64,000 nt of DNA, taken from contig NZ_LMMV01000023.1 in the NCBI RefSeq assembly GCF_001422405.1, positions 63,156 through 127,155 on the forward strand, given 5' to 3'. The stretch is from Pseudorhodoferax sp. Leaf267. Lineage in GTDB: Bacteria > Pseudomonadota > Gammaproteobacteria > Burkholderiales > Burkholderiaceae_C. The first letter of the stretch is position 1. Every line of letters starts with the position of its first letter. A program made the translations under genes and the position numbers. Below, piece by piece: positions 48,486-64,000 of the stretch. A model generated the notes under the pieces. The model was not told the origin of the DNA and did not search any database. It worked only from the letters and a program-made list of their open reading frames with translations.

Positions 48486-49169
48486 TCAGCGCCCCAGCCG
48501 ATACGGCTCCTCGAAATCGAGGAACGCCTTCTCCGCCAGAGCGCCCTCGATCCAGCGCTGCACGCCCGGCAGTTCGCGCACGCGGTCCACGTAGGCCGCG
48601 ATCGCAGGCGGCAGCGGCAGCGCGTAGGTCAGCAGGCGCATGCAGACGGGCGCGTAGTAGGCGTCGGCGATGCTGAAGGCGCCGAACAGCATCGGGCCGC
48701 CGTGCGCGGCCAGCAATTCCTCCCACATCGCCACCAGGCGCGCCACGTCGGCGCGCACACCGGGTTTGTCGCGCCAGATCAGCTGGCCGGTCTCGGGCAG
48801 GCGGGCCTCGATGTTCATGGGGCAGTTCGAACGCAGCGCGCCGAAGCCCGCATGCATCTCGGCACAGATGCTGCGCGCGCGGGCGCGGGCCTTGGCATCT
48901 GTGGGCCACAGCTGCCTGTCGGGGAATCGCTCGGCCGCGTATTCGGCGATCGCCAGCGTGTCCCACACGGCCAGGTCGCCGTCCACGAGCACGGGCACCT
49001 TGCCCACGGGCGTGATGCCGGTCAGCGCATTCTTGAACTGCGAACCGGGGTCGAACGAGTCGAAGCCGACCATGACTTCTTCGAACGGGATGCCGGCCTG
49101 GGTCAGCAGCACCCAGGGCCGCATGGACCAGGACGAGTAATTTTTGTTGCCGATGTAGAGCTTGAGCAT
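48486..49169 (-). CDS. glutathione S-transferase
   Basis: A 227-residue protein starting MLKLYIGNKNYSSWSMRPWVLLTQAGIPFEEVMVGF. The thioredoxin-like N-domain has NYSSWSMRP (catalytic Ser) and GKVPVLVDGDLAVWDTLAIAEYAAERF with the cis-Pro and the Asp that bind glutathione. The helical C-domain follows (GAFSIADAYYAPVCMRLLTYALPL). It probably conjugates or reduces small electrophiles in the cytoplasm. It converges with the RCC1-repeat gene, with only 3 bp between the two stop codons. Confidence 0.93.
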   Translation of the reverse strand: MLKLYIGNKNYSSWSMRPWVLLTQAGIPFEEVMVGFDSFDPGSQFKNALTGITPVGKVPVLVDGDLAVWDTLAIAEYAAERFPDRQLWPTDAKARARARSICAEMHAGFGALRSNCPMNIEARLPETGQLIWRDKPGVRADVARLVAMWEELLAAHGGPMLFGAFSIADAYYAPVCMRLLTYALPLPPAIAAYVDRVRELPGVQRWIEGALAEKAFLDFEEPYRLGR

Positions 49170-49274
49170 GCGGACTCCTGGTGCGTTGGGTCCGCGATGC
49201 TAGCGCGCCGACGCCGCGCGATCGATGCCGAAAGCGCGGGCGATTGATGCGCGGCCCGCAAGGCCGCGCCGCGC

Positions 49275-50255
49275 TCAGCGCAGTGTCAGCCCCGCTGTCT
49301 TGATGGCCCGGCTGTACTTGGGCTGATCGGCCCGCAGGCTCGCCGCCAGCGCCTCGGGCGTGCCGCCGGCGATGCCGAATCCGAGCTCCAGTAGCTTGCT
49401 GCGCACATCGGGCGCCTGCAGCACGGCCTGGATGTCGCGGTTGATCTTGCGCACCACCTCGGGCGGCGTGCCGGCCGGGGCGAAGTAGCCCTGCCAGCTC
49501 TCCACCGAGAAGCCCGCGGGGCCGCCCGCCTCGGCGATGGTGGGCACGTCGGGCAGGGCCGGCGAGCGGTAGTCCGTGGTCACGGCCAGCGCGCGCAGCT
49601 TGCCGGCGCGCACGTAGTCGGTCACCGCGGCCAGCGTGATCAGCGTGGCGTTGGTGTGGCCGGCCAGCACGTCCAGCGTGGCCGGGCCGCCGCCGCCGTA
49701 GGGGATGTAGTTGACCTTGGCGCCGGTCTCCTGCGCCAGCATCTCGTGCGCCACATGGGCCACGCCGCCGTTGCCGGGCAGCCCCAGGCTGATGCTGTCG
49801 GGCTGGGCCTTGGCGCGGGCCAGGTAGTCGGCCAGCGTGTTCAGGCCCGTGCCCGGGTGCACCACCAGGATCTGCGGGTTGACCACGGCCTTGATGATGG
49901 GCGCGAAGCTCTGCGCGCCGTAGGGCAGCTCCTGGAACAGGATGCTGTTGAGCGTGAGGCCCTCGCCCTGTTGCAGCAGCGTGTAGCCGTCGGGCGCGGC
50001 CTTGGCCACGCGCGCCGCGCCGATGGTGCCGCTGGCGCCGGCCACGTTCTCCACCACCACGTTCTGGCCCCACAGCGCGGTGAGCTTGTCGGCGATCAGC
50101 CGCGTGAGCTTGTCGGCACTGCCGCCGGGCGCCACGGGCACGACGATGCGCACGGGCTTGGTCGGGAAGTCGGGCGCGGCGTGCAGCGCGGGCAGGGCCA
50201 GGGCCGTGAGCGCGAGGCCGGCGGCGAGGGTGCGTAGAAAAGTGCGAGGGGTCAT
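49275..50255 (-). CDS. Bug/TctC-type periplasmic solute receptor
   Basis: A 326-residue protein with a signal peptide (MTPRTFLRTLAAGLALTALALPALHA). The mature core is DFPTKPVRIVVPVAPGGSADKLTRLIADKL, then VVENVAGASGTIGAARVAKAAPDGYTLL, LGLPGNGGVAHVAHEM and YIPYGGGGPATLDVLAGHTNAT. It binds a small acid or amide in the periplasm. No TctAB membrane partner is nearby, as with most Bug paralogues. The 159-bp gap to the divergent dioxygenase-rhodanese gene is likely to hold both promoters. Confidence 0.94.
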   Translation of the reverse strand: MTPRTFLRTLAAGLALTALALPALHAAPDFPTKPVRIVVPVAPGGSADKLTRLIADKLTALWGQNVVVENVAGASGTIGAARVAKAAPDGYTLLQQGEGLTLNSILFQELPYGAQSFAPIIKAVVNPQILVVHPGTGLNTLADYLARAKAQPDSISLGLPGNGGVAHVAHEMLAQETGAKVNYIPYGGGGPATLDVLAGHTNATLITLAAVTDYVRAGKLRALAVTTDYRSPALPDVPTIAEAGGPAGFSVESWQGYFAPAGTPPEVVRKINRDIQAVLQAPDVRSKLLELGFGIAGGTPEALAASLRADQPKYSRAIKTAGLTLR

Positions 50256-50414
50256 GGCAGTGGGCCGTTCGATGCGAAACAGCTGCGCAATCTAGGCGGC
50301 ACGCCGCGCGCGAGGAACGACGCATTTCAGATATCCAAGCGCGAATTGCTTCGTTGGCGCGGGCCGTCGCGCGCGCTACGTTCGGCGCACCGTTCACACC
50401 GCTTGGCCTCTTCC

Positions 50415-52634
50415 ATGACCCAGACCCACGTTTCCCTCGACTTCAGCGGCAGCGACACCGCCAGCCAGCGCGCCCGCGCCGTCGCGGCCTTCATCGCCAC
50501 CGCGCGCCGCCTGATCCCCGAGCCGACACGCGCCACGCCCGAGCAGCTGCGCGCCACGGCCTCGGCGCTGGAGGCGCTGGGCCTGCAGCGCGCGCTGTTT
50601 CCGCTCGATCACTTTCCCGTGTCCGAGGCCAACCCGGCCCAGGTCTGGCGCCTGGCCGAAGACCTGGATGGCCGCTACGCGCTCTACGCGTCGGCCGGCC
50701 TGCCCGGCAAGGCCCAGCCGCCGCACGACCACACGACTTGGGCCATCATCGCCGGCGTGCACGGCAACGAGCGCAACGTGTTCTACCGCCGCGACGCCAC
50801 GGCCGATGCGCAGCGCCACACCCTGACCGCCCTGCGCACGGTGGACGTGGTGGCCGGTGCCTCCGTCACGCTGCTGCCCAGCGACGTGCACACCATCGAA
50901 CTGGTGGGCGACGCACAGGGCCTGCAGCTGCACTTCTACGGCCTGGCGCTGGACCGCCTGCCCGGCCGTGTGGTGTTCGAGAGCAAGGAGGGCGGCACGT
51001 ACCGCACCTTCGGCCCGCCCAAGTCCATCCGCCATGCGCTCGTCACGCCGCAGGCGCTCAAGGCCGCGCTGGCCGATGGCGAGGAGATCGCCGTGCTCGA
51101 CGTGCGCGAGGCCGGCGTGTTCGCCCACCGCCACATCCTGTTCGCCGCGCCCGCGCCGCTGTGGCGCCTCGAATTGCTGATCGACCGCCTGGTGCCGCGC
51201 CGCAACACGCGCACCGTGCTGGTCGACGGCAACGAGACGCTGGCCCACGAGGCCGCCGCCAAGCTGGCGCGCCTGGGCTGGACCAACCTCTCGGTGCTGG
51301 CCGGCGGCACCGACGGCTGGGAGGCGGCGGGCTACGAGATCTTCAGTGGCAGCAACGTGCCCAGCAAGGCCTTCGGCGAAGTCATCGAGCACGAGAAGCA
51401 CACGCCCTGGATCACGTCCGAACAGCTGGCAGAACGCGTGGCGCGCGGCGACGACATCGTGGTGGTGGACAGCCGCACGCCCGAGGAGTTCGCCGACTTC
51501 AGCCTGCCGTTCGCGCACAGCCTGCCGGGTGCCGAGCTGGTCTACCGCATCGGCGAACTCGCGCCGCGGCCCGAGACCTTCGTGGTGGTGAACTGCGCCG
51601 GCCGCACGCGCAGCATCGTGGGTGCGCAGACGCTGATCGATGCCGGCATTCCGAACCAGGTCGCCTCGCTGCGCAACGGCACCATGGACTGGCTGCTGAC
51701 CGGCCGCACGCTGGCGCATGGCCGCCAGGCCGCGCTGCCGGAGCCCTCGGCCGAGACCTTGGCGACCGCCCGCGCGCGCGCCGAGGCCGTGGCGAAGCGG
51801 GCCGGCGTGCAGCGCATCGACGCGCTGGATCTGGCGCGCTTCGAGGCCGAAGCCGAGGCGCAGGCCCGCACGCTGTACCGCTTCGACGTGCGCACGCGCG
51901 AGGAACACGAGGCCGGCCACCTGCCGGGCTGGCGCTGGGCGCCCGGCGGGCAGCTGGTGCAGGCCACCGACGAATACGCCGCCGCGCGCGGTGCGCGTAT
52001 CGTGCTGGCCGACTGGGACGGCGTGCGTGCGCTGACCACGGGCGCCTGGCTGGCCCAGCTGGGCGGCTACGAGGTCTTCGTGTTCGTGCCGCAGCGCTTG
52101 CCCACGCTGGCGGCCGGCCCCGAGCCGGTGCAGGTGCTGGCCTCGCGCCCGGCGGCCGCGGCCATCGCGCCGGTCCAGGCGCAGGCGCTGCTGGCGGCGG
52201 GCCAGGCCGTGGTGTTCGACGTGGAGCGCCGCGCGGCGTTCGAGAAGCGCCACATCGCCGGCGCGCGGTTCTCGGTGCCGGACCGCCTGCCCGCGTTTGT
52301 GGCCGAGCTGCCGGTGGCGCAGGCCGTGCTGGTCACCTCGCCCGACGGCGTGCTGGCCCGCACCGTGGCCGCCGAGCTGGCGGCGCGCACCGGGCGCGAC
52401 GTGCGCGCGCTCACGGGCGGAACGGCTGCCTGGGCTGCTGCCGGCCTGCCGGTGGAACAGGGTGGCGAGGGCGTGCTGACGGGCGACGACGACCACTGGT
52501 ACAGCCCCTACCACCATGCCGATCTGGCCCAGCGTGATGCGGGCTTTCAACAGTACCTGGATTGGGAACTGGGCCTGGTGGGGCAGCTGGAGCGGGAAGG
52601 GGCGACGGGCATTCGCCTGTTGCCGCAGGCCTGA
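50415..52634 (+). CDS. thiol dioxygenase (CDO-type cupin) fused to four rhodanese domains
   Basis: A 739-residue cytoplasmic protein. Residues 1-205 resemble cysteine dioxygenases: PPHDHTTWAIIAGVHGNERNVFYRR supplies His104 and His106, and LPSDVHTIEL supplies His159, the three iron ligands. Four rhodanese domains follow, at about 206-310, 325-432, 465-560 and 580-680. Only the second has the catalytic cysteine (Cys394, loop CAGRTRS). The others have Asp271, Asp533 and Ser642 near that position, so they are probably structural. The product of thiol dioxygenation, a sulfinate, or a persulfide could pass to the active rhodanese. The substrate is unknown. A Bug receptor gene follows 3 bp downstream. 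Confidence 0.88.
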   Translation: MTQTHVSLDFSGSDTASQRARAVAAFIATARRLIPEPTRATPEQLRATASALEALGLQRALFPLDHFPVSEANPAQVWRLAEDLDGRYALYASAGLPGKAQPPHDHTTWAIIAGVHGNERNVFYRRDATADAQRHTLTALRTVDVVAGASVTLLPSDVHTIELVGDAQGLQLHFYGLALDRLPGRVVFESKEGGTYRTFGPPKSIRHALVTPQALKAALADGEEIAVLDVREAGVFAHRHILFAAPAPLWRLELLIDRLVPRRNTRTVLVDGNETLAHEAAAKLARLGWTNLSVLAGGTDGWEAAGYEIFSGSNVPSKAFGEVIEHEKHTPWITSEQLAERVARGDDIVVVDSRTPEEFADFSLPFAHSLPGAELVYRIGELAPRPETFVVVNCAGRTRSIVGAQTLIDAGIPNQVASLRNGTMDWLLTGRTLAHGRQAALPEPSAETLATARARAEAVAKRAGVQRIDALDLARFEAEAEAQARTLYRFDVRTREEHEAGHLPGWRWAPGGQLVQATDEYAAARGARIVLADWDGVRALTTGAWLAQLGGYEVFVFVPQRLPTLAAGPEPVQVLASRPAAAAIAPVQAQALLAAGQAVVFDVERRAAFEKRHIAGARFSVPDRLPAFVAELPVAQAVLVTSPDGVLARTVAAELAARTGRDVRALTGGTAAWAAAGLPVEQGGEGVLTGDDDHWYSPYHHADLAQRDAGFQQYLDWELGLVGQLEREGATGIRLLPQA

Positions 52635-52637
52635 GAG

Positions 52638-53624
52638 ATGCGCATCACGCCTCTGTACCGCCGCGCACTGCTCGCGCGTGCGGCTGCCTGTGTGGCAGCG
52701 CCCTGGCTGGCCGGCGCGGCGCAGGCCATCGACTTGCGCGGCCGCCCCGTGCGGCTCGTGCTGCCGCTGGCGCCGGGCGGCGCCATGGACGTGTTGGGCC
52801 GCGGCCTGGCCAGCGAACTCGGCCAGCGGCTGGGCACCAACGTCGTGGTGGAAAACCGCGCCGGTGCCGGCGGCAACCTGGCGCATGAACTCGTGGCCGG
52901 CGAGAAGCCCGACGGCCATGCGCTGCTGCTGACCAGCAACGCGCTCGTGGCCAACGTCACGCTGTTCGAAGGCCGCGTGCGCTACGACCCGATCCGCAGC
53001 TTCGCCCCCGTGAGCATCATCGCCAGCACGCCCGCGGCGCTCGTCGTGCGCAGTGATGCGCCGGCCGCCGACGTGGCGGCGCTGGTGCGCCAGGCGCGCG
53101 GCGCGGGGGTCAGCGTGGGTACGCCGGGCTTTGGCAACGGGAACCATCTGGCCCTGGTCAAGCTGCAGCGCGCGCAGGGCGGCGACTGGGTGCATGTGCC
53201 GTACAAGGGCGCCGGCCCTGCGGTGGTCGGCCTGCTGGGCGGCGAGACCGACGCGGCCATCGTGGCCCTGCCGGCGGCCCTGGCGCAGGTGCAGTCGGGC
53301 AAGCTGCGTGCGCTGGCCGTGCTGCAGGGGCGGCGCAGCCCCATCACGCCCGAGGTGCCCACGCTGGCCGAGGCCGGCGTGGCGCTGACGCTGGATACCG
53401 GCTGGTTCGGCCTGCTGGCGCCTGGCGGCACACCGAGCGATGTGGTCGAGCGCGTGCACCAGGCCGCGGCCGATGCACTGGCCGACCCGGCCTTTCGCGC
53501 GCAACTGGGGCGCCAGGGCTTCGAGACCGTCGGCAGCACGCCGCAGGCGTTCGCGCAGCAGCTCCGCGCCGACGTGGCCTACTTTCCGCCCCTGCTCAAG
53601 AGCATCGGCGCACGCGTTGAGTGA
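52638..53624 (+). CDS. Bug/TctC-type periplasmic solute receptor
   Basis: A 328-residue protein with a signal peptide (ITPLYRRALLARAAACVAAPWLAGAAQA). It has the family pattern GRPVRLVLPLAPGGAMDVLGRGLASELGQ, VVENRAGAGGNLAHELVAGEKPDGHALLLTSNALVANVTLF, GFGNGNHLALVKLQRA and YKGAGPAVVGLLGGETDAAIVAL. It starts 3 bp after the dioxygenase-rhodanese stop, so the two are co-transcribed, suggesting that it captures the substrate of that enzyme, possibly an organosulfur acid. This link is inference. Confidence 0.94.
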   Translation: MRITPLYRRALLARAAACVAAPWLAGAAQAIDLRGRPVRLVLPLAPGGAMDVLGRGLASELGQRLGTNVVVENRAGAGGNLAHELVAGEKPDGHALLLTSNALVANVTLFEGRVRYDPIRSFAPVSIIASTPAALVVRSDAPAADVAALVRQARGAGVSVGTPGFGNGNHLALVKLQRAQGGDWVHVPYKGAGPAVVGLLGGETDAAIVALPAALAQVQSGKLRALAVLQGRRSPITPEVPTLAEAGVALTLDTGWFGLLAPGGTPSDVVERVHQAAADALADPAFRAQLGRQGFETVGSTPQAFAQQLRADVAYFPPLLKSIGARVE

Positions 53625-53644
53625 CGCATCAGCAGGAAGCCTTC

Positions 53645-54412
53645 ATGCCGACCATCGCCCTGGGTGCCAGCATCCATTACGAGACCTACGCCCCCGGGCC
53701 CGACGCGCCACAGGGCCTGCCCGTGCTGCTGCTCGCGCCGGGCGGCCTGCGCTCGCGCATCGGCCTGTGGCGCCACACGCACGACGGCCGCCCGCGGCCC
53801 TGGCCCGATCCGACGGTCGAGCTGGCCCGCGCGCACCGCGTGGTGGCGCTGGACCAGCGCAACGCCGGACTGTCGCGTGCGCCCGTGCGGCCCGACGACG
53901 GCTGGCACAGCTTTGCGGCCGACCACCTGGGTGTGCTCGATGCGCTGGGCATAGCCCGCTTCCACGTGGTGGGCGCGTGCATCGGCGCGTCGTTCGCATT
54001 GAGGCTGGCGGAATGCGCGCCGCAGCGCGTGGCGTCGGCCGTGCTGCAGCAGCCGATCGGCTGGACAGCCGAAAACGCGCTGCTGCGGCCCGAGAGCTTC
54101 GAGGCCTGGGCGCGCGACGCGCGGCCGTGGCTGCCGGGCGTGCCCGAGGCGCATCTGCGGGCGCTGGAGCGCAACCTCTTTGGCGGTGACGACTTCGTGT
54201 TCAGCGTGTCGCGCCAGTTCGTGCGCGAGACGCAGACGCCGCTGTTGGTCCTGGCCGGCAACGATGTGCACCACCCGGCGGAGACGTCGCGGGAACTGGC
54301 AGCGTTGGCGCGGCGGGGGCGCCTGGTGCCGCAGTGGACCGGCGAGGCCCACCGCGCCACCTATGTGCAAGGGATTCTGGAATTCTTCCGGCAGGCGGAA
54401 GCGGCGGGCTGA
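53645..54412 (+). CDS. alpha/beta hydrolase with Cys in the nucleophile elbow
   Basis: A 255-residue protein starting MPTIALGASIHYETYAPG; AGGAAG lies 6 bp upstream. The fold is that of the HIP/lactonase-type hydrolases: LLLAPGGLRSRIG (oxyanion region), VVALDQRNAGLSRAP, and the nucleophile elbow VVGACIGASFALRLAE. The elbow has Cys rather than Ser (GACIG), as in dienelactone hydrolases. Asp in LAGNDVHHP and His in GEAHRATY complete a possible triad. It lies 20 bp downstream of the Bug receptor in the same operon. Its substrate is not evident. Confidence 0.85.
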   Translation: MPTIALGASIHYETYAPGPDAPQGLPVLLLAPGGLRSRIGLWRHTHDGRPRPWPDPTVELARAHRVVALDQRNAGLSRAPVRPDDGWHSFAADHLGVLDALGIARFHVVGACIGASFALRLAECAPQRVASAVLQQPIGWTAENALLRPESFEAWARDARPWLPGVPEAHLRALERNLFGGDDFVFSVSRQFVRETQTPLLVLAGNDVHHPAETSRELAALARRGRLVPQWTGEAHRATYVQGILEFFRQAEAAG

Positions 54413-55471: not shown

Positions 55472-56686
55472 TTACGCAGCCACCGCCAACTGACTCTGGC
55501 TCTCCGCCCGCACCAACGCCTGCCCCAGGTCCGCGATCAGGTCCTGCGGGTCCTCCAGCCCCACATGCAGCCGCACGACCGGATCGGTGCCGTTCCATGC
55601 ACTGTGCTCGCGCAGCCGCTCCGGCGCCGCGATCAGCGCCAGGCTCTCATAGCCACCCCACGACGCCCCGATGCCGAAGAACTGCAGCGCATCGATGAAG
55701 GTCTCGGCCTGCTGCTGGTCCGCGCCCTCCAGCACGAACGATACGAGCCCGCTCGCACCGGTGAAGTCCCGCTTCCACAGCGCATGGCCCGGGTCGTCCG
55801 CCAACGCGGGGTAGAACACGCGGCCCACCTGCGGCTGCCGGTGCAGCCACTGCGCAACCTCGGTCGCATGGCGCTGGTGCTGCGCCAGGCGCACCGGCAG
55901 CGTGCGCACGCCGCGCAGGGCCAGGTAGGCGTCGTCGGCGCCGATGGTCAGGCCCAGGGCTTCATACGCGGTGGACAGCTTGGCGGCCAGCGCCGGCGAG
56001 TCGGCCACCACGATGCCCTGCATCACGTCCGAATGCCCGGCGATGTACTTGGTCGCTGCCTGGATGGAGAGGTTGGCGCCGAGCTGCAGCGGCTTGTAGA
56101 ACCAGCCGCCGCTCCAGGTGTTGTCGGTCGCCACCGGGATGCCGTGCGCGCGCGCCACGGCCGTCAGCGCCGGCAGGTCCAGCACCTCGTACAGCAGCGA
56201 GCTGGGCGACTCCAGGTAGACGAGTTTGGTGTTGGGGCGGATCTTCGCGACCAGGTCGTCCTGCGAGGGCGAGAAGTATTCGAGCGTGATGCCCAGCCGC
56301 TGCAGTAGCGTGGCGTCGACGCGGCGCACGGGCGAGTAGACGCTGTCGGCCACCAGCGCATGGTCGCCGGGCGAGAGCAGGGCCAGCAGCACCAGCGTGA
56401 TGGCGGACAGGCCCGAGGGCGTGAGGAAGGCGCGGTGGCCGCCCTCCAGCGCGGTGACGGCGTCTTCGAGCGCGCGGTGCGTGTCCAGCCCGTGCCGGCC
56501 GTACGAGGCCACGCGCTCGCCGGCCACGCGCCGGTGGTGGTGGTCGGCGTAGGCGGCGGTGTCGGCGAAACGCACGGTGCTGGTGCGCACCACCGGCACG
56601 TTCACGGGGCCGGAGCCGCCGCGCAGGGGCGGCGTGCCGGCGTGCAGCAGGCGCGTGGCGGGGCCGATGGGCGGGGCCTGCGTCAT
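55472..56686 (-). CDS. metC: cystathionine beta-lyase (MetC-like, PLP-dependent)
   Basis: A 404-residue PLP enzyme. The MetC-type signature YGRHGLDTHRALEDAVTALEGG is at about 62-83. It is followed by LTPSGLSAIT, DSVYSPVRR, VATDNTWSGGWFYKPLQLGANLS and the PLP-lysine in QAATKYIAGHSD (Lys213). It cleaves cystathionine or other C-S bonds of thiol amino acids with release of a thiol, ammonia and a keto acid. The start overlaps the stop of the CDO-type gene (ATGA). In this transport operon it may act on an imported organosulfur compound rather than in methionine synthesis. Confidence 0.9.
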   Translation of the reverse strand: MTQAPPIGPATRLLHAGTPPLRGGSGPVNVPVVRTSTVRFADTAAYADHHHRRVAGERVASYGRHGLDTHRALEDAVTALEGGHRAFLTPSGLSAITLVLLALLSPGDHALVADSVYSPVRRVDATLLQRLGITLEYFSPSQDDLVAKIRPNTKLVYLESPSSLLYEVLDLPALTAVARAHGIPVATDNTWSGGWFYKPLQLGANLSIQAATKYIAGHSDVMQGIVVADSPALAAKLSTAYEALGLTIGADDAYLALRGVRTLPVRLAQHQRHATEVAQWLHRQPQVGRVFYPALADDPGHALWKRDFTGASGLVSFVLEGADQQQAETFIDALQFFGIGASWGGYESLALIAAPERLREHSAWNGTDPVVRLHVGLEDPQDLIADLGQALVRAESQSQLAVAA

Positions 56687-57312
56687 ACGGCGGCTTCCTC
56701 GCTGGGCTTGAGCTGCGAGGCGTTGTAGCGCACCACCTTGCCGGTCTCGGGCTCGATGCCGATGCGGTCCGTCAGGCGTTCCAGCGGCAGGCCGTACAGG
56801 TGGAAGTGCAGCGTGGGCTCGCTGCCCTTCACGTGGATGCTGTGGATGTCGTCGGGCAAAAAGGCGATGGGCGTGCCGGGCCGCACCGTCACCTCGCGCG
56901 CCACTTCCAGCTGCGCATGGTCGGGGTTGCGGCCGTCGTCGGTGCGCGCGTAGACGCGGTTCTCTTCCTCGCCCTGCACGGCCACGATGACGGCCCAGGT
57001 CGTGTGGTTGTGCGGCCAGGTGGTCTTGCCGGGGTTGATCGAGTTCAGGTAGAGGGCCAGGCCGTCGTCGCCATCGGCAGCATTGAGCCGGTAGCGCGTG
57101 GATGCGCCCACGCCTTCCGTTGCGGCTGGCGGCGGGAAGTCGGCGCGCGTGAACCAATCGGCGTGCGCGGCCAGGCGCTCCAGCCGCGCCGTGATGGCGG
57201 CGAGAACGCTGCGGTCGGGCGGGCCGCCGGCCACGAGCTGGCGCACGTCGGCCAGGGTCTCGTCAATCGCCTGGCGGCGTTCGGATTGCAGGGCGGTAGG
57301 GGCTTGGGTCAT
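56683..57312 (-). CDS. CDO-type cupin, putative thiol dioxygenase
   Basis: A 209-residue protein starting MTQAPTALQSERRQAIDE. The cupin segment WPHNHTTWAVIVAVQGEEENRVYAR gives two His of the iron site, and FLPDDIHSIHVKGSEPTLHFHLYGLPLERL gives the third. This is the same pattern as in the N-terminal domain of the fusion at 50415-52634 and in bacterial cysteine or 3-mercaptopropionate dioxygenases. It adds O2 to a free thiol to give a sulfinate. It is placed between the ABC transporter ATPase gene and the lyase gene, with translation coupled to the latter, which suggests that it oxidises the thiol the lyase releases. Confidence 0.88.
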   Translation of the reverse strand: MTQAPTALQSERRQAIDETLADVRQLVAGGPPDRSVLAAITARLERLAAHADWFTRADFPPPAATEGVGASTRYRLNAADGDDGLALYLNSINPGKTTWPHNHTTWAVIVAVQGEEENRVYARTDDGRNPDHAQLEVAREVTVRPGTPIAFLPDDIHSIHVKGSEPTLHFHLYGLPLERLTDRIGIEPETGKVVRYNASQLKPSEEAAV

Positions 57313-57331
57313 GGGGTTCTCCTTGGATGTT

Positions 57332-58159
<828 letters not shown>

Positions 58160-58189
58160 GGCAGTGGCCGCGATGGAGGAGAGAAAGGT

Positions 58190-59020
58190 TCAGTGGCGTT
58201 CATGGCGGCGCTCCAGCGCGCGGGTGGCGCGGGCAATCGGGTAGCAGTAGGCGAAGAACAGCACCAGCAGCGTGAAGTACACGAGGATGGTGAAGTCGGT
58301 GCGGGCCACGGTGTTGCTGGCGATCTGCGCCGTGTCCACCACGTCGTGCACGCCGACCAGCGAGGCGAGTGAAGTGCTCATGGTGATGCTGGCGTACAGG
58401 TTCATCCACGGCGGCAGCATGCGGCGCACGCACTGCGGCAGCACCACCAGCCGGAAGATCTGGCTGCGCTTGAAGGCCAGCGACTGCGCCGCCTCCCATT
58501 GCGCGCTGGGGATGGACTGGATCGCCCCGCGGAAGATCTCGGCCACGTTGGCGCTGGTGGGCAGCGCCAGGCCCAGCACCACCTTCACCCAGTCGGGGAA
58601 CGGGAAGGTCCAGGCCACGATGTTCAGCTCGAACGGGAACACGTAGGTCGTGAAGTAGATCAGCACCAGGATGGGCGCATTGCGGAACACCTGCACGTAG
58701 CAGCGCATGAGCACGCGCACGGCCGGCAGGGGCGACAGCGACAGCGCGCCCACGACCAGGCCGACCACGGTGCCGATAGCCACGGCCAGCACGCTGATCT
58801 CGATGTTCACGAGCAGGCCGCGCAGCAGCGCCGGCATCCAGCGCCACAGGTGCGTGAAGGCCGCGGGCGCGCTGCCCGTGGCGTTCCAGTACCCCAGCAC
58901 GGCCAGCGCCGCGGCGGCGGCGATCAGCCAGGGGTTGCGCGCGGCGTTCAGCAGCGCGGCGGGCAAGCCCAAGGCGCGAGAGGGCGCGGCGGCGCGGGGC
59001 AGGGTGGCTTCATTGGCCAT
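58190..59020 (-). CDS. amino acid ABC transporter permease (second subunit)
   Basis: A 276-residue membrane protein. After an N-terminal helix pair (ALGLPAALLNAARNPWLIAAAAALAVLGYW), it has the HisMQ-type block LLRGLLVNIEISVLAVAIGTVVGLVVGALSLSPLPAVRVLMRCYVQVFRNAPILVLIYFTTYVFP. The coupling motif SAQWEAAQSLAFKRSQIFRLVVLPQCVRRMLPP resembles EAA...G. It overlaps the preceding permease gene by 11 bp and forms a heterodimer channel with it. Confidence 0.94.
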   Translation of the reverse strand: MANEATLPRAAAPSRALGLPAALLNAARNPWLIAAAAALAVLGYWNATGSAPAAFTHLWRWMPALLRGLLVNIEISVLAVAIGTVVGLVVGALSLSPLPAVRVLMRCYVQVFRNAPILVLIYFTTYVFPFELNIVAWTFPFPDWVKVVLGLALPTSANVAEIFRGAIQSIPSAQWEAAQSLAFKRSQIFRLVVLPQCVRRMLPPWMNLYASITMSTSLASLVGVHDVVDTAQIASNTVARTDFTILVYFTLLVLFFAYCYPIARATRALERRHERH

Positions 59021-59762
59021 AGCCGGGCATCCTCCATCGGTGTTCTAGCCAGCGGCCGGCGCGGCTCACGAGCCAGGTCAAGAGGCCGAACCAGATCAGG
59101 ATCAGCAGCAGCAGTTCCAGCACGTTGTCGCGTTGCGACCAGATCATGATGGACTCGTAGGTCACGTCGCCGACCGCGATGGCCGAGGCCACGGCCGTCA
59201 TCTTCACGAGGTCCACGAGGTTGTTGACCAGCGAGGGCAGCGCGAAGCGCACGGCCAGCGGCAGCTGCACGCGCGCCAGCAGCTGGCGCTGCGAGAAGCC
59301 CAGCGAGCGCGCGGCCTCCAGCGTGGTACCGGGCACGGCCTCGATGCCGGCGCGCAGCGCCTCGGCATGGAACACGCCCTTGTGCAGCGACACCACGATC
59401 ACCACCCACACGAAGGGCGTGAGCGGGTTGTTGCCGGCGCCGAAATCGCGCAGCTGCTGCGTGATCAGCATGTTGAGCACGAGGAAGGCGCAGTACAGCT
59501 GCACCAGCGTGGGCGTGTTGCGCGTGACCTCGACGAAGGCGCGCGCGGGGCCGGCGATCCAGGCGCGGCTGGACGTCATGAGCGCGGCCAGCAGCACGCC
59601 GGCCGCCAGGCTGCCCGGGATGGTCAGCAGCGCGAGCTGCACGGTCACGCCCAGGCCGCGCACGAAGGCCTGGCGCTCGCTGGCGTCGAGCACGAAGGCG
59701 TAGTTCAGGCCCAGGTTCTTGAATGCCGCCACGCCCTGCACGAGCAGGGTGTCGGTGGTCAT
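59010..59762 (-). CDS. amino acid ABC transporter permease (first subunit)
   Basis: A 250-residue membrane protein starting MTTDTLLVQGVAAFKNLG. It has FVRGLGVTVQLALLTIPGSLAAGVLLAALMTSSRAW, FVEVTRNTPTLVQLYCAFLVLNMLI and the ATPase-coupling PGTTLEAARSLGFSQRQLLARVQLPLAVRFALPSLVNNLVDLVKMT. These are the HisM/GlnP permease signatures. Its start overlaps the aminotransferase stop (ATGA), so enzyme and transporter are translated together. Confidence 0.94.
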   Translation of the reverse strand: MTTDTLLVQGVAAFKNLGLNYAFVLDASERQAFVRGLGVTVQLALLTIPGSLAAGVLLAALMTSSRAWIAGPARAFVEVTRNTPTLVQLYCAFLVLNMLITQQLRDFGAGNNPLTPFVWVVIVVSLHKGVFHAEALRAGIEAVPGTTLEAARSLGFSQRQLLARVQLPLAVRFALPSLVNNLVDLVKMTAVASAIAVGDVTYESIMIWSQRDNVLELLLLILIWFGLLTWLVSRAGRWLEHRWRMPGYGQ

Positions 59763-61024
59763 CCTGCGGCCTCGGCTTCCAACGTGCGCACGTCAGTGAC
59801 GTGCGCAGGCCGCAACGCCGCTACGGCGCGCGCGATGCGTGTCGTCGCGTCCGACAGCACCGCATCGCTGGCCGCCGTGGAAATGCGGAAGTAGGGCGAC
59901 AGGCCATAGCTCGCGCCATCCACCGCCGCCACGCCTTCGGCTTCGAGCAGCCAGTCCGTCAGCTCGGCATCGGTGCGGATCACCTGTCCATCAGGCCGCT
60001 GCAAACCCAGCAGCGCGCCGCAATGCACGAACGCGAAGAACGAGCCGCCGGGCGTCAGCAGCTTCAGGCCGGGCACGGTGTTGAGGGCGTTGACCACCAG
60101 CGTCGCGCGCCGCGCATAGGCCGCGCGCGCCTCGCCCACGAAGCGCTGGTCCGCTGATTCCAGCGCCGACGCCACGGCCGCCTGTGCGATGGAGTTGGGG
60201 CCGGAAGAGGCCTGCGACTGGATCACGACCATGGCCTGCACCAACGCGGCAGGGCCTGCGCCCCAGCCGATGCGCCAGCCGGTCATGGCGTAGGTCTTGG
60301 ACGCGCCGTTGACCAGCAGCGTGCGCTCCTTCAAGTCCGGCGCGACATGCAGCCAGTGCGCAGGCGCCTCGGGCGTGAACCAGATGTGCTCGTACAGCTC
60401 GTCCAGCAGTACCAGCACCTGCGGGTGGCGGCGCAGCACTGCTGCCAGCGCCGCGAGCTCGGCCGCGTCGTACAGCGCGCCGCTGGGGTTGCCCGGCGTG
60501 TTCAGCACCAGCCAGCGCGTGCGCGGCGTGATGGCCGCCTCCAGCGCAGCCGGCGTGAGCTTGAAGCCCACGGCGATGTCGCAGGGCACGATCACGGGCT
60601 GGCCGTCGTTGACCAGCACCATGTCGGGGAACGATGGCCAATAGGGCGCGGGGATGATGACCTCGTCGCCCGCGTCCAGCGTGGCGGCCAGCGCGTTGTA
60701 GATCACCTGCTTGCCGCCGTTGCTGACGACGATCTGCGCGGCGGGGTAGTCCAGCGCGTTCTCGCGTGTGTATTTGGCGCTGATCGCGCGGCGCAGGGCC
60801 GCTGTGCCGGCCGTCGGTGTGTACCTGGTTTCGCCGCGCGCCATGGCCGCGATGGCGGCCTGCTGGATGGGCTCGGGCGTGTCGAAGTCGGGCTCGCCCG
60901 TGGTCAGTGCGATCACGTCGCGGCCCTGCGCGGCCAGGGCGGCGGCGCGCTGGCTGGCGGCGGCGTTGGGCGAGAGCTTGACGCGCTGCGCGCGTTGCGA
61001 GAGCAGGATGGGGGTGGTCGTCAT
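59759..61024 (-). CDS. class I/II aminotransferase (PLP-dependent)
   Basis: A 421-residue protein starting MTTTPILLSQRAQRVKLSPNAAASQRAAAL. Features of subgroup I-gamma aspartate-type enzymes are LTTGEPDFDTPEPIQQAA, NGGKQVIYNALAATLDAGDEVIIPAPYWPSFPDMV, LNTPGNPSGA, LLDELYEHIWF and the PLP-lysine in NGASKTYAMTGWRIGWGAG, then SYGLSPYFRIS. It interconverts an amino acid and a 2-keto acid. With the FAD-linked oxidase next to it, it would link a 2-hydroxy acid, a 2-keto acid and an amino acid in one pathway. Confidence 0.94.
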   Translation of the reverse strand: MTTTPILLSQRAQRVKLSPNAAASQRAAALAAQGRDVIALTTGEPDFDTPEPIQQAAIAAMARGETRYTPTAGTAALRRAISAKYTRENALDYPAAQIVVSNGGKQVIYNALAATLDAGDEVIIPAPYWPSFPDMVLVNDGQPVIVPCDIAVGFKLTPAALEAAITPRTRWLVLNTPGNPSGALYDAAELAALAAVLRRHPQVLVLLDELYEHIWFTPEAPAHWLHVAPDLKERTLLVNGASKTYAMTGWRIGWGAGPAALVQAMVVIQSQASSGPNSIAQAAVASALESADQRFVGEARAAYARRATLVVNALNTVPGLKLLTPGGSFFAFVHCGALLGLQRPDGQVIRTDAELTDWLLEAEGVAAVDGASYGLSPYFRISTAASDAVLSDATTRIARAVAALRPAHVTDVRTLEAEAAG

Positions 61025-62457
61025 GGTGTGCTTTCTTCTGCGGTGTGCGGCGCGAGCACCTTGCCGGGGTTGAGCAGCCCGAGCGGGTCGAACGCGGCCT
61101 TCAGCCTTCTCATGAGGTCCAGCTCCACCGCGCTCTTGTAGCGGGGCAGCAGGTCGCGCTTGGTCTGGCCCACGCCGTGCTCGGCGCTGATGGAGCCGCC
61201 ATGCGCATGCACGCTGTCGTGCACCAGTTCGTGGATGGCGTCCTCTGCGGCGAACAGCTCGGCCGGCGTGGCGCTCGGCGCGTGCGAGACGTTGTAGTGC
61301 AGGTTGCCATCGCCCAGGTGGCCGAACGCGACCGGCCGCACGCCGGGAAAGCGCGCCTGCAGCGCGGCGGCGGTGGCGGCCAGGAAGTCCGGGATGCGCG
61401 AGATCGGCACCGACACGTCGTGCTTGATGTTGCGGCCATCGCGCTGCTGCGCCAGGCCCAGCGCCTCGTCGCGCAGGCGCCAGAGGGCGTCGCTCTGCGG
61501 CAGGCTTTCGGCGATGGCCGCGTCCGTGACCAAGCCGTCCTCGAAGGCCTGGCTGACCACGGCTTCGAAGCGTTCGCGCGCGTGGGCTTCGCCCTCGCTG
61601 TCCGACAGCTCGACCAGCGCGTACCACGGAGCGTCCAGCGGCAGCGGCAAGGGTTGCGCCGGCACATGCTGCGCGATCAGGCCCAGGGCCGTGTCCGACA
61701 TCAGCTCGAAGGCCGTGAGGCTGGCGCCGAAGCCGGCCCGCGCGCTGCTCAGGAAGGCCACCGCGTCGCGGATGCAGCCGAAGGCCAGCAGCGCGGTGTG
61801 CTGCGCCTGCGGCAGCGGGTACAGCTTGAGCGTGGCCGCGGTGATGATGCCCAGCGTGCCCTCGCTGCCCACGTACAGGTCGCGCAGCGCGTAGCCGGTG
61901 TTGTCCTTGCGCAGGCCGCGCAGGCCGTCCCAGACCGCGCCCTCCGCCGTGACCACCTCCAGCCCCAGCACCAGCTCGCGCGTGTTGCCGTAGCGCAGCA
62001 CCTGGGTGCCGCCCGCGTTGGTGGAGAGGTTGCCGCCGATGGTGCAGCTGCCCTCCGAGCCCAGGCTCAGCGGGAACAGGCGCCCGGCTTCGCGCGCGGC
62101 CTGCTGCACGTTTGCCAGCACGGCGCCGGCCTCCACGGTCAGCGTGTCGTTGTCGCGGTCGATGGCGCGGATGCGCTGCAAGCGGCCCAGCGACAGCAGC
62201 ACGGCCCGGCCGCTGCCGTCCGGCGTGGCCGCGCCCATCAGGCCGGTGTTGCCGCCCTGCGGCACGATGGGCGTGCGGTGCTGGCGGCACAGGCGCACCA
62301 CCTGCGCGACCTGGGCCGTGTCGGCCGGGCGCACCACGGCCAGCGCGCGGCCGGTCAGCCGGCGGTGCTGGTCGGTCAGGTAGCCGGTGGCGTCGTCACC
62401 GGTCAGCACATGGGTGCTGCCCAGTGCCTCGCGCAATGCGGCCAGCAATGTGCTCAC
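61021..62457 (-). CDS. FAD-linked 2-hydroxyacid oxidase (GlcD/D2HGDH family)
   Basis: A 478-residue protein from a GTG start (62457) that overlaps the binding-protein stop (GTGA). It has VVRPADTAQVAQVVRLCRQHRTPIVPQGGNTGLMG (FAD site), LGSEGSCTIGGNLSTNAGGTQVLRYGNTRELVLGLEVV, YVGSEGTLGIITAATLKLYPLP, FGHLGDGNLHYNV and SAEHGVGQTKRDLLPRYKS. These are the VAO-fold oxidase and dehydrogenase signatures. It would oxidise a D-2-hydroxy acid to the keto acid. In the aminotransferase operon it probably feeds that enzyme. Confidence 0.93.
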   Translation of the reverse strand: MSTLLAALREALGSTHVLTGDDATGYLTDQHRRLTGRALAVVRPADTAQVAQVVRLCRQHRTPIVPQGGNTGLMGAATPDGSGRAVLLSLGRLQRIRAIDRDNDTLTVEAGAVLANVQQAAREAGRLFPLSLGSEGSCTIGGNLSTNAGGTQVLRYGNTRELVLGLEVVTAEGAVWDGLRGLRKDNTGYALRDLYVGSEGTLGIITAATLKLYPLPQAQHTALLAFGCIRDAVAFLSSARAGFGASLTAFELMSDTALGLIAQHVPAQPLPLPLDAPWYALVELSDSEGEAHARERFEAVVSQAFEDGLVTDAAIAESLPQSDALWRLRDEALGLAQQRDGRNIKHDVSVPISRIPDFLAATAAALQARFPGVRPVAFGHLGDGNLHYNVSHAPSATPAELFAAEDAIHELVHDSVHAHGGSISAEHGVGQTKRDLLPRYKSAVELDLMRRLKAAFDPLGLLNPGKVLAPHTAEESTP

Positions 62458-63353
62458 TGTTTCTTGCCCTCTGCGGCTGCCGCAGCCTGCGCCTCGCCAT
62501 ACACCGCGAAATCGAACGGCGCGCGGTCGAACTGGCCCTTCAGCGCGCGCTGGTGGCGCTCGGCGATCCAGGTGTCGGGCACGCCCCACTGGCGCGCCTG
62601 CTTGAGCAGGAAGCCCGTGCGGTGCCAGTCCTGGATGGCCTTGTCGACGAAGGCCTGCGTGTCGGCCTCGCCGCGGCGCGTCCACACCACGGTGGGCGAA
62701 GGAATCAACTGGTCTTGCGTGCCGAGTTCGAAGTCCTTCCACTCGGCCGCGTTGGGGCCGGTAAGCTTCTCGTACAGCGCGGGCTGGATGTGGACTGACG
62801 CGGCGCAGGTGCCGCCCTTGAGCGCGAGCAGCGACTCGGGAATGCCGCGCAGGCCCTTGACCACGGCGCCGTAGGTTTCTGCCAGCGGCCTGGCGAAGTT
62901 GCTGCCCTGCGAGACGCAAGCCACCTTGCCGCGCAGGTCTTCCCAGCGCTTGATGTTGCTGGCCTTGGCCACCAGCGCGCCGCCGCCGATCAGGTCGTAG
63001 GGCGTGGGCGCGAACGACAGGATCTCGCTGCGCTCCTGCGTCCACTGGATGTTGGCGATCAAGAGGTCGACCTTGCCGCTCTGCAGGAACTGCACGCGCG
63101 TGGAGGCGGTCACGGGCACCGTCTCCAGCGCCACGCCCAGGCGCCTGGCGATGTCGGCGGCCAGCGCAGTCTGGTAGCCGCCGGTCTTGCCCGTGGCCGG
63201 GTCGAGCACGCCGAAGGGCGGGCTGGCGCCGTCGATGCCGACGGACAGCTTGCCGCGCTGCTGGATCTTGTCGAGCGTGGCGTCAGCGTGGGCGGTGCCG
63301 CCCGAGAAGGCCAGGGCCAGGGCGGCGGAAAGGGGAGCGAGGAAGCGGTGCAT
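62454..63353 (-). CDS. amino acid ABC transporter periplasmic binding protein (copy 2)
   Basis: A 299-residue protein with a signal peptide (MHRFLAPLSAALALAFSGGTAHA). The mature part has TLDKIQQRGKLSVGIDGASPPFGVLDPATGKTGGYQTALAADIARRLGVALETVPV, the PBP type 3 pattern, and KVDLLIANIQWTQERSEILSFAPTPYDLIGGGALV. It binds an amino acid or related ligand for the permeases encoded downstream. Sequence blocks such as WEDLRGK, CVSQGSNFA and SLLALKGG are shared with the gene immediately upstream, so the two are tandem paralogues. Confidence 0.95.
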   Translation of the reverse strand: MHRFLAPLSAALALAFSGGTAHADATLDKIQQRGKLSVGIDGASPPFGVLDPATGKTGGYQTALAADIARRLGVALETVPVTASTRVQFLQSGKVDLLIANIQWTQERSEILSFAPTPYDLIGGGALVAKASNIKRWEDLRGKVACVSQGSNFARPLAETYGAVVKGLRGIPESLLALKGGTCAASVHIQPALYEKLTGPNAAEWKDFELGTQDQLIPSPTVVWTRRGEADTQAFVDKAIQDWHRTGFLLKQARQWGVPDTWIAERHQRALKGQFDRAPFDFAVYGEAQAAAAAEGKKQ

Positions 63354-63434
63354 GTGGACATCCGATCGGCAAAGGCGCGGCCAGCCCCGCGTGCACGGGG
63401 CCATGCCAGGGAAGAAAAAAACGGGAAGGGTGGC

Positions 63435-64000
63435 TTAGTTCGCCGCGGCCTTGAATTTGGCCTGCAGCTCGGGCAGCAGCGGGTTCGGCGGCTCGATGCC
63501 GACACGCTTTTCGGTGGCGATCAGCCAGCCGCTGCGGTGCCATTCCTGCACTACCTTGTCGACGGCGGCGATGGTGTCGGCCTCGCCCTTGCGCGTCCAC
63601 ACCACCGAGGGGGCGGGCAGCACTTCTGTGGCGATGGGCGCGCTGTACTGCGTCCACTCGGGGTTGCTCCGCAGCAGCGGCTGGATCAGCGTGCTGTCGT
63701 GCACGGCAGCCACGCAGTTGCCGCCCTTGAGCGCCAGCAGCGAATCGGACGAGCTCTTGAAGCCCTGCACCTGGGCGCCGTAGTCGTTGGCCAGCGGCTT
63801 GGCGAAGCTGCTGCCCTGCGACACGCAGACCGGCTTGCCGCGCAGGTCTTCCCACTTCGTGATGCCGCTGTCCTTGCGCACGGCGGCCGTGCCGCCCACG
63901 CGGAAGAACGGCGTGGGCGCGTGGCCCAGGATCTCGCCGCGGTCGGCGTTGTATTCCATGGACGCGATCAACAGGTCGACCTTGCCGGCCTGCAGGAACT
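63435..64000 (-). CDS. amino acid ABC transporter periplasmic binding protein (copy 1, N-terminus outside window)
   Basis: The 3' portion of about 188 residues is inside the window; the frame runs on past base 64000, so the start is not visible. It contains LQAGKVDLLIASMEYNADRGEILGHAPTPFFRVGGTAAV, SGITKWEDLRGKPVCVSQGSSFAKPLANDYGAQVQGF, SLLALKGGNC and EVLPAPSVVWTRKGEADT, parallel to the next gene. A second binding protein in one operon suggests that two related ligands are imported by the same permease. It is upstream of all other operon genes seen. Confidence 0.93.
   Translation of the reverse strand, partial: FLQAGKVDLLIASMEYNADRGEILGHAPTPFFRVGGTAAVRKDSGITKWEDLRGKPVCVSQGSSFAKPLANDYGAQVQGFKSSSDSLLALKGGNCVAAVHDSTLIQPLLRSNPEWTQYSAPIATEVLPAPSVVWTRKGEADTIAAVDKVVQEWHRSGWLIATEKRVGIEPPNPLLPELQAKFKAAAN

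What the first reader, a model, noticed from the sequence alone, without database searches (positions are those of the whole stretch)
55472..64000. Transport operon that looks built for a sulfur-containing amino or hydroxy acid
Seen: one strand, nearly every gene overlapping the next, encoding two paralogous binding proteins, an FAD-linked 2-hydroxyacid oxidase, an aminotransferase, two permeases, an ATPase, a CDO-type dioxygenase and a MetC-like lyase. Known: MetC-type enzymes break C-S bonds and release a thiol; CDO-type cupins oxidise thiols; GlcD-type oxidases make keto acids that aminotransferases accept. Inference: the import of a thioether- or disulfide-bearing 2-hydroxy or amino acid, conversion to an amino acid, C-S cleavage and dioxygenation of the thiol. 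I know of no named pathway with exactly this set.
Basis: partly seen in the sequence, partly recalled or inferred. Interest (0 to 1): 0.75.

Follow-up and report, generated by a model that had tools for sequence, protein, structure and literature searches.

The report
Operon for salvaging sulfur-bearing amino acids
A bacterium carries a ten-gene operon that looks built to import a sulfur-linked derivative of cysteine, and apparently also the same molecule without its amino group, to cut the carbon-sulfur bond and to oxidise the released thiol; if right, it suggests a natural purpose for an enzyme family known from degrading an industrial thiol.

Summary
On the minus strand the operon runs: rhodanese-repeat protein (outside the window), binding protein SBP1 (cut by the edge), SBP2, D-2-hydroxyacid dehydrogenase, aminotransferase, two permeases, ATPase, cupin, MetC-like lyase. 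The cupin is not an ordinary cysteine dioxygenase: its nearest solved relative by sequence and fold is mercaptosuccinate dioxygenase (Msdo, 8vni), and it forms a clade beside that of Msdo. Lyase, cupin and amino-acid transporter recur together in Burkholderiales, and most lyases linked to either cupin clade share one branch. New here: the binding proteins differ exactly where the ligand's alpha-amine is held. One kind keeps Glu/Asp (44 of 83 sequences), the other has Gln/Ile-or-Val (36 of 83), and the second kind is present wherever the aminotransferase is (25 of 25 loci). I read this as uptake of an anionic cysteine S-conjugate and of its deaminated (hydroxy or oxo) form, conversion to the amino acid, beta-elimination, and oxidation of the thiol to sulfite. 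The best guess for the S-substituent is succinyl (S-(2-succino)cysteine), but the substrate is unproven, and two genomes carry both cupin types, which argues for different substrates.

The parts
55472..56686 (-). MetC-like PLP C-S beta-lyase (404 aa)
   Evidence: PF01053 350.9 bits; TIGR01324 402.6 against cut-off 365.9; ATG at 56686; E. coli Tyr338 position is Ala
56683..57312 (-). Msdo-like thiol dioxygenase (cupin)
   Evidence: 8vni E 2e-44 by sequence; model pLDDT 92.7, Foldseek best hit 8vni E 2.8e-22; clade beside Msdo
57332..58159 (-). ABC transporter ATPase, polar amino acid type
   Evidence: PF00005; best NCBIfam hit TcyN 303.1 bits, below its cut-off of 406
58190..59020 (-). ABC permease (Perm2)
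   Evidence: PF00528; TIGR01726 68.1 against cut-off 42.2
59010..59762 (-). ABC permease (Perm1)
   Evidence: PF00528; TIGR01726 52 against cut-off 42.2
59759..61024 (-). aspartate-aminotransferase-like enzyme
   Evidence: PF00155; best solved relative 6f77 aspartate aminotransferase A, E 3.4e-122
61021..62457 (-). FAD-linked D-2-hydroxyacid dehydrogenase (GlcD / D-2-hydroxyglutarate dehydrogenase superfamily)
   Evidence: PF02913 and PF01565; 3pm9 E 7.8e-135, 6lpn E 1.3e-88
62454..63353 (-). SBP2: family-3 binding protein without the alpha-amine-binding Asp (Gln/Ile)
   Evidence: PF00497; residues; start at 63353 chosen for its signal peptide (the ORF opens at 63404)
63435..64000 (-). SBP1: family-3 amino-acid-type binding protein (Glu/Asp), cut by the window edge
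   Evidence: complete in L009 9590-10426, PF00497 65.5 bits; residues
50415..52634 (+). second, fused dioxygenase cupin plus rhodanese protein of a linked cluster
   Evidence: 37% match to the cupin; PF00581 rhodanese, three stretches; linked to the operon in L041, L132, L135
52638..53624 (+). TctC-type carboxylate-binding protein of the linked cluster
   Evidence: PF03401; kept next to the fused cupin in L041, L132, L135
53621..54412 (+). alpha/beta hydrolase of the linked cluster
   Evidence: PF00561; homologue directly after the cupin in L042

Best explanation
The operon salvages cysteine S-conjugates that carry an anionic S-substituent. SBP1 brings in the amino-acid form; SBP2 brings in the same molecule without a free alpha-amine, most likely the 2-hydroxy or 2-oxo acid (a mercaptolactate or mercaptopyruvate S-conjugate). 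The shared permeases and ATPase import both. The GlcD-type dehydrogenase oxidises the hydroxy acid to the oxo acid, and the aminotransferase turns this into the L-cysteine S-conjugate. The MetC-like lyase beta-eliminates it to thiol, pyruvate and ammonia. The Msdo-like cupin oxidises the thiol to a sulfinate that yields sulfite, perhaps handled by the rhodanese. Shown: gene content, conservation, clades, the binding-site residue split. Inferred: every chemical step. Leading candidate for the S-substituent: succinyl, giving S-(2-succino)cysteine to mercaptosuccinate to succinate plus sulfite (about 0.3).
For: Cupin: best solved relative 8vni Msdo by sequence and by fold, TM 0.87/0.94 against about 0.7 for 3-mercaptopropionate dioxygenases and 0.64 for mammalian CDO. 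It keeps an Arg in the column of Msdo Arg66, the predicted substrate-binding Arg (PMC8503633, passage). Synteny: MetC within 9 kb in 46 of 52 loci of the window's clade; MetC nearby in 7 of 8 loci in the clade holding 8vni. The lyases of the window clade (45 rows) and of 6 of those 7 loci share one branch, SH-aLRT 99. Linked lyases have Ala/Ser at E. coli Tyr338 in 56 of 56, against 2 of 27 unlinked homologues. SBPs: 44 of 83 have Glu+Asp and 36 of 83 Gln+Ile/Val at the two amine-contact positions, with Arg in all 83; in LAO these positions (Ser72, Asp161) lock the alpha-amine and Arg77 binds the carboxylate (PMC4192606, PMC5740067, passages). Amine-less SBP in 25 of 25 loci with the aminotransferase, 7 of 21 without. 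GlcD only where the aminotransferase is, 11 of 11. An aminotransferase of another subfamily (24% identical) sits between cupin and MetC in L081 and L082. In A. mimigardefordensis two PAAT proteins beside msdo rise on mercaptosuccinate (ratios 22.7 and 7.0), yet deleting the whole transporter had no influence on growth on it or any tested carbon source (PMC5373536), so that transporter has another cargo.
Against: No enzyme or binding assay is known to me for any of these proteins. The window cupin is beside, not inside, the clade with 8vni, and two genomes (G219, G289) carry both types, which suggests different thiols. Loss of the amine site also fits an N-substituted ligand, as in opine-binding proteins, and in OccJ changing Asn202 to Asp had no effect on ligand recognition, so this one residue need not decide specificity. 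Of 8 other family-3 SBPs of this genome that could be aligned (13 found), 3 also lack the Asp. The link of aminotransferase and amine-less SBP rests on few independent events (mean 5.5 concordant, 0 discordant of 7 pairs, p 0.03-0.06). Six of 52 loci lack MetC. Among other cupins with Arg66 and Leu68 the lyase link is weaker, 9 of 17. The lyases of L080, L126, L114 and L118, though linked, fall outside the shared branch.
Confidence: 0.55

Rival explanations
1. Same pathway logic, but the S-substituent is another small carboxylate: S-carboxymethylcysteine (thiol mercaptoacetate) or S-(2-carboxyethyl)cysteine (thiol 3-mercaptopropionate).
For: The window clade has an extra Arg two residues after the Arg66 equivalent and coexists with Msdo-clade cupins in two genomes, so its thiol may differ from mercaptosuccinate. 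Nearest folds after Msdo are 3-mercaptopropionate dioxygenases.
Against: The closest assayed relative acts on mercaptosuccinate; no test here separates these thiols.
Confidence: 0.25
2. Cystine or cysteine mixed-disulfide catabolism: the lyase splits cystine to thiocysteine, rhodanese handles the persulfide, the cupin is a cysteine dioxygenase; SBP2 and GlcD serve the mercaptolactate-cysteine disulfide.
For: The best NCBIfam hits of the ATPase and of SBP2 are cystine transporter parts; MetC enzymes can act on cystine (recalled).
Against: All those hits are far below their cut-offs: ATPase 303.1 of 406, permeases 103.5 and 79.9 of 300, SBP2 78.3 of 312. The cupin falls below the CDO cut-off and its model ranks CDO structures behind Msdo and 3-mercaptopropionate dioxygenases.
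Confidence: 0.12
3. Cystathionine or lanthionine catabolism, the lyase releasing homocysteine or cysteine for the cupin.
For: TIGR01324 cystathionine beta-lyase passes its cut-off, 402.6 of 365.9.
Against: Tyr338 to Ala/Ser and, for most, a separate branch mark the dioxygenase-linked lyases; the genome has another MetC-like gene (40% identical); the cupin's assayed relative acts on a dicarboxylic thiol.
Confidence: 0.1
4. GlcD and aminotransferase act downstream of the cupin, for example the aspartate-type aminotransferase on an amino-acid sulfinate (cysteinesulfinate is an aspartate analogue; recalled).
For: The aminotransferase is closest to aspartate aminotransferases. L083 has a cupin, aminotransferase and GlcD without MetC.
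Against: Does not explain why an amine-less SBP is in every locus with the aminotransferase. The L083 aminotransferase passes the DapC cut-off and may be housekeeping.
Confidence: 0.13
5. SBP2 binds an N-substituted (acylated or opine-like) S-conjugate instead of a hydroxy or oxo acid.
For: The Asp is replaced by Asn in OccJ and Ser in NocT, which bind opines.
Against: No deacylase or opine-oxidase family appears among the hits listed for the operon genes (long lists were cut at 25), whereas GlcD and aminotransferase are there; the replacing residue is a hydrophobic Ile/Val in 36 of the 39 SBPs without the Asp.
Confidence: 0.12

Closest known systems
msdo gene region of Advenella mimigardefordensis DPN7 and of Variovorax paradoxus B4 (PMC5373536, passages read)
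   Same: Msdo-family cupin, cystathionine beta-lyase and rhodanese together (both); PAAT amino acid ABC transporter (A. mimigardefordensis)
   Different: The published text treats these regions as mercaptosuccinate degradation under a LysR regulator; the passages I read name no aminotransferase or GlcD there. The window cupin is of a neighbouring clade, with paired SBPs, GlcD and aminotransferase; I saw no LysR gene adjoining the operon.
Bacillus subtilis yxe operon and S-(2-succino) lyase pathway for S-(2-succino)cysteine (PMC9706529, abstract and Discussion read)
   Same: Breakdown of a cysteine S-conjugate; would share the substrate if the succinyl guess is right
   Different: Those use N-acetylation, a monooxygenase or a fumarate-releasing lyase, and deacetylation, and give cysteine. 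No such family was among the hits listed for this operon; here the beta-lyase would release mercaptosuccinate and pyruvate.
Opine-binding proteins OccJ and NocT against LAO (PMC5740067, PMC4192606, passages read)
   Same: Family-3 binding proteins that lost the Asp holding the alpha-amine and bind ligands without a free amine
   Different: Here both versions sit side by side in one operon with one pair of permeases; the replaced residue is Ile/Val together with Glu to Gln.

Membership tests
Mercaptosuccinate dioxygenase (Msdo) | Closest solved relative is Msdo | tested here: met
   8vni E 2e-44; Foldseek E 2.8e-22, 40% identity
Mercaptosuccinate dioxygenase (Msdo) | Three Fe-binding His and the Arg66 position | tested here: met
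   His at the 8vni 93, 95 and 149 columns and Arg at column 66; His101, His103, His157 invariant in 34 sequences; assignment as iron ligands recalled from the cupin family
Mercaptosuccinate dioxygenase (Msdo) | Lies inside the clade that holds 8vni | tested here: not met
   separate clade, 52 rows, support 100/96; clade with 8vni 9 rows, 100/100
Mercaptosuccinate dioxygenase (Msdo) | Oxidises mercaptosuccinate | not testable with these tools
   needs an assay
Cysteine dioxygenase type I (PF05995) | Reaches the Pfam gathering score | tested here: not met
   16.8 bits against 23
Cystathionine beta-lyase (TIGR01324) | Reaches the curated cut-off | tested here: met
   402.6 against 365.9; the Msdo-linked lyase of L121 also passes, 403.1, so the model does not separate them
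Cystathionine beta-lyase (TIGR01324) | Cleaves cystathionine in vivo | not testable with these tools
   sequence only
L-cystine ABC transporter (Tcy type) | Reaches cut-offs of TcyN, cystine permease, cystine SBP | tested here: not met
   303.1 of 406; 103.5 and 79.9 of 300; SBP2 78.3 of 312; whole SBP1 not scanned with NCBIfam
Glycolate oxidase GlcD | Reaches the GlcD cut-off, with GlcE and GlcF beside it | tested here: not met
   282.4 of 567.9; neighbours are SBP2 and the aminotransferase
yxe-type S-(2-succino)cysteine pathway | N-acetyltransferase, YxeK or 2SL, deacetylase in the operon | tested here: not met
   no such family among the hits listed for the operon genes (long lists cut at 25)

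The most novel reading that the evidence does not exclude
A third bacterial route for S-(2-succino)cysteine, the stable product of fumarate damage to cysteine: no acetylation, direct beta-elimination to mercaptosuccinate and pyruvate, and Msdo-type oxidation to succinate and sulfite. A twin binding-protein transporter also collects the deaminated mercaptolactate or mercaptopyruvate form. It would explain why mercaptosuccinate dioxygenases exist in nature.
Probability: 0.3. Interest if true: 0.8.

Novelty: new variant of a known kind. Interest (0 to 1): 0.55.

Why it matters
Mercaptosuccinate dioxygenase is described in the papers I saw as the key enzyme for degrading mercaptosuccinate, a discussed polythioester precursor; no natural source of that thiol is named in the passages read. 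The neighbouring amino-acid transporter and C-S lyase suggest that the real substrate is a cysteine S-conjugate, and S-(2-succino)cysteine is the cysteine conjugate whose beta-elimination would give mercaptosuccinate (inference from beta-lyase chemistry). That makes a specific, cheap test possible. Separately, two binding proteins that differ at exactly the amine-contact positions, tied to an aminotransferase and a hydroxyacid dehydrogenase, give a genomic sign for operons that collect both the amino and the deaminated form of a metabolite.

Tried and rejected
Asp116 of E. coli cystathionine beta-lyase is Arg in the window enzyme. I first took this as a sign of an extra carboxylate on the substrate, but 26 of 27 unlinked homologues also lack Asp there and all 27 have Arg at 115, so it says nothing. 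Ala338 stood the same control (2 of 27 have Ala).

A housekeeping role in methionine synthesis for the operon's lyase looks unlikely, since another MetC-like gene is in the genome, but that gene misses its own cut-offs (462.7 of 500; 311.8 of 365.9), so I do not press it.

No paper in the held library holds both 'mercaptosuccinate' and '2-succino' or 'mercaptosuccin' and 'succination'; a six-term search for the gene set returned only PMC5373536. These searches cover open-licence papers only. The original Msdo paper and the E. coli lyase mutant paper are not held.

One row labelled unlinked in the lyase tree, L147, falls inside the dioxygenase-linked branch; it has rhodanese matches beside it. 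It is not among the 27 controls (L148-L174). The 27 controls of the tree are L147-L174 without L170, whose frame holds a stop.

Rows dropped or completed: L137 is the same contig as L042 (counted in the 53, left out); L135 was completed with L190 of the same genome; L076, L082 and L170 lyases, whose frames hold one stop each, were left out of the lyase tree but counted. L075 and L141 are one contig.


Full report
Observation. The window is G000:C23:63156-127155. Reading past the edge (L009) completes SBP1 and adds a 540-aa protein with rhodanese repeats (three stretches in Pfam) as the first gene. From SBP2 to the lyase the junctions are -4, -4, -4, -11, 30, 19 and -4 bases; rhodanese to SBP1 is 79 and SBP1 to SBP2 is 81. 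Start codons were read from the sequence; that of SBP2 is a choice.

Cupin. It misses the Pfam CDO cut-off. The best solved relative is mercaptosuccinate dioxygenase 8vni (E 2e-44); the next is the Azotobacter enzyme 6xb9 at E 8e-6, a 3-mercaptopropionate dioxygenase (title). A model from 34 sequences has mean pLDDT 92.7 and finds 8vni first, E 2.8e-22, TM 0.87/0.94. In a tree of 120 sequences the window cupin lies in a 52-row clade (100/96) with Arg at both the 66 and 68 columns of 8vni; the clade with 8vni (9 rows, 100/100) has Arg66 and Leu68. A few other rows lie between the two. Arg66 is the predicted substrate-binding residue of Msdo (PMC8503633, passage). G219 and G289 hold both types.

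Synteny. Sources: one scan of genome contigs (85 relatives, 80 loci kept), a sample of 299 genomes of the family (21 with a match), plasmid records (27 with a match; 7 regions opened) and 15 stretches fetched. In the window's clade 46 of 52 loci have a MetC-type gene within 9 kb of the cupin; with a stricter rule (same strand, within 4 kb, 4 kb of sequence on both sides) 42 of 47. Under that rule the other classes give 9 of 17 (Arg66, Leu68), 12 of 13 (Ile66, Arg68, mostly fused cupins lying beside the operon) and 0 of 20 for the remaining thirteen small classes together. Of the 8 loci in the clade with 8vni, 7 have the lyase nearby: L121, L123, L126, L127, L129, L130, L131; L128 does not. In Aminobacter (L126) the transporter beside it is of the branched-chain type. 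Six window-clade loci lack the lyase: L042, L057, L064, L065, L073, L138; L042 starts at its contig's end, so a lyase upstream could be missed. In L042 an NtaA/DmoA-family monooxygenase ends 21 bases before the cupin, and L065 has one nearby with an SfnB-like and an SsuA-like gene. These families are known from organosulfur breakdown (recalled).

Lyase. In a quick tree one branch (SH-aLRT 99, 53 rows) holds the 45 window-clade lyases, 7 lyases linked to Arg66/Leu68 cupins (6 of them beside the 8vni clade) and L147, a row labelled control that has rhodanese matches beside it. E. coli MetC and the other 26 controls lie outside, as do the linked L080, L126, L114 and L118. At E. coli Tyr338 the linked lyases have Ala in 46 of 46 (window clade) and Ala or Ser in 10 of 10 (Arg66/Leu68 cupins); of 27 unlinked homologues 17 have Tyr and 2 Ala. 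A smaller residue there could leave room for a branched S-substituent; that is inference.

Binding proteins. In LAO, Ser72 and Asp161 hold the ligand's alpha-amine and Arg77 its carboxylate; NocT, which lacks both, binds no amino acids, while OccJ with Asn202 still binds arginine at micromolar affinity, and its N202D mutant behaves like the wild type (PMC4192606, PMC5740067, passages). Of 83 binding proteins in the loci, 44 have Glu, Asp and Arg at these places, 36 have Gln, Ile or Val, and Arg, 2 have Leu, Glu and Arg, 1 has Thr, Asn and Arg; the solved templates 4zv1, 2yjp and 1xt8 have Thr, Asp and Arg (residues listed). SBP1 is of the first kind, SBP2 of the second. The 83 include close relatives, so they are not 83 independent events. 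As a control, of the 13 other family-3 binding proteins found in this genome 8 could be aligned: 5 have the Asp, 3 do not.

Coupling. Among the 46 loci with the lyase, 25 have the aminotransferase (over 55% identical), and all 25 have an amine-less SBP (24; L135 completed from L190); of the 21 without it, 7 have one. GlcD occurs in 11 loci, all with the aminotransferase. On the tree, 7 independent pairs on well-supported branches give on average 5.5 concordant and 0 discordant, p 0.03-0.06; for GlcD and aminotransferase 5 pairs give 2.8 and 0, not significant. L081 (Ottowia thiooxydans) has cupin, a DapC-like aminotransferase only 24% identical to the window's, and the lyase in a row with 4-base overlaps, and two TctC-type carboxylate-binding proteins; L082 has the same order, but its lyase frame holds a stop. 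L083 has cupin, DapC-like aminotransferase and a GlcD 53% identical to the window's, without a lyase; its aminotransferase passes the DapC cut-off and may be housekeeping.

Reading. The order hydroxy acid, oxo acid, amino acid, thiol, sulfinate explains why GlcD needs the aminotransferase and why the aminotransferase goes with an amine-less SBP. The thiol should be anionic because of the Msdo kinship. In A. mimigardefordensis the binding protein and ATPase of the PAAT system next to msdo rise 22.7- and 7.0-fold on mercaptosuccinate, yet deletion of the complete system had no influence on growth with all tested carbon sources, mercaptosuccinate included (PMC5373536, passages). I take this to mean that the transporter's real cargo is something whose breakdown gives mercaptosuccinate. 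For a beta-lyase that is S-(2-succino)cysteine, a known damage product for which acetylation-based routes are published (PMC9706529, abstract and Discussion). No held paper joins the two topics by the terms I used. For the window's own clade the substituent may differ.

Linked cluster. 50415-54412 (+) holds a cupin-rhodanese fusion, a TctC-type binding protein and an alpha/beta hydrolase. The three stay together in L041, L132 and L135, within about 10 kb of the operon; the hydrolase was found in 6 loci in all, two of them one contig and one the window itself.

Verdict. A real, conserved organosulfur salvage operon, related to the published msdo regions but extended by a twin binding-protein system and two enzymes. 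A new variant of a known kind; the substrate is open.

Noticed in passing
window 48486-54412: Beside the operon: a glutathione S-transferase (48486-49169, -), a TctC protein (49275-50255, -), and a plus-strand cluster of cupin-rhodanese fusion, TctC protein and alpha/beta hydrolase.
   Followed up: partly
L042 330-2288: An NtaA/DmoA-family FMN monooxygenase ends 21 bases before a window-clade cupin, with no MetC lyase in the stretch held; perhaps another way to free the thiol.
   Followed up: partly
L065 2911-12297: Window-clade cupin near an SfnB-like oxidoreductase, an NtaA-like monooxygenase and an SsuA-like sulfonate-binding protein, without MetC.
   Followed up: partly
L120 15958-21556 (Variovorax paradoxus VAI-C plasmid): The operon's metC is followed by three hydantoinase/oxoprolinase genes in the same direction; cargo may include cyclic precursors.
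   Followed up: no
L122 17056-17832 (Caballeronia sp. NK8 plasmid): A TauE/SafE-family gene annotated as sulfite exporter lies just after the lyase and rhodanese genes, on the other strand; fits release of sulfite.
   Followed up: no
L081 7239-14123 (Ottowia thiooxydans): Rhodanese, TctC, cupin, DapC-like aminotransferase, MetC, TctC in a row: an aminotransferase of another subfamily in the same context.
   Followed up: yes
L083 9956-13313: Cupin, DapC-like aminotransferase and GlcD homologue in a row without a lyase; not explained by the proposed order.
   Followed up: partly
L044 11894-12745 and L124 from 15258: Extra binding proteins with Glu in place of the amine-binding Asp and Leu at the other contact, near the fused cupin; ligand unknown.
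   Followed up: no
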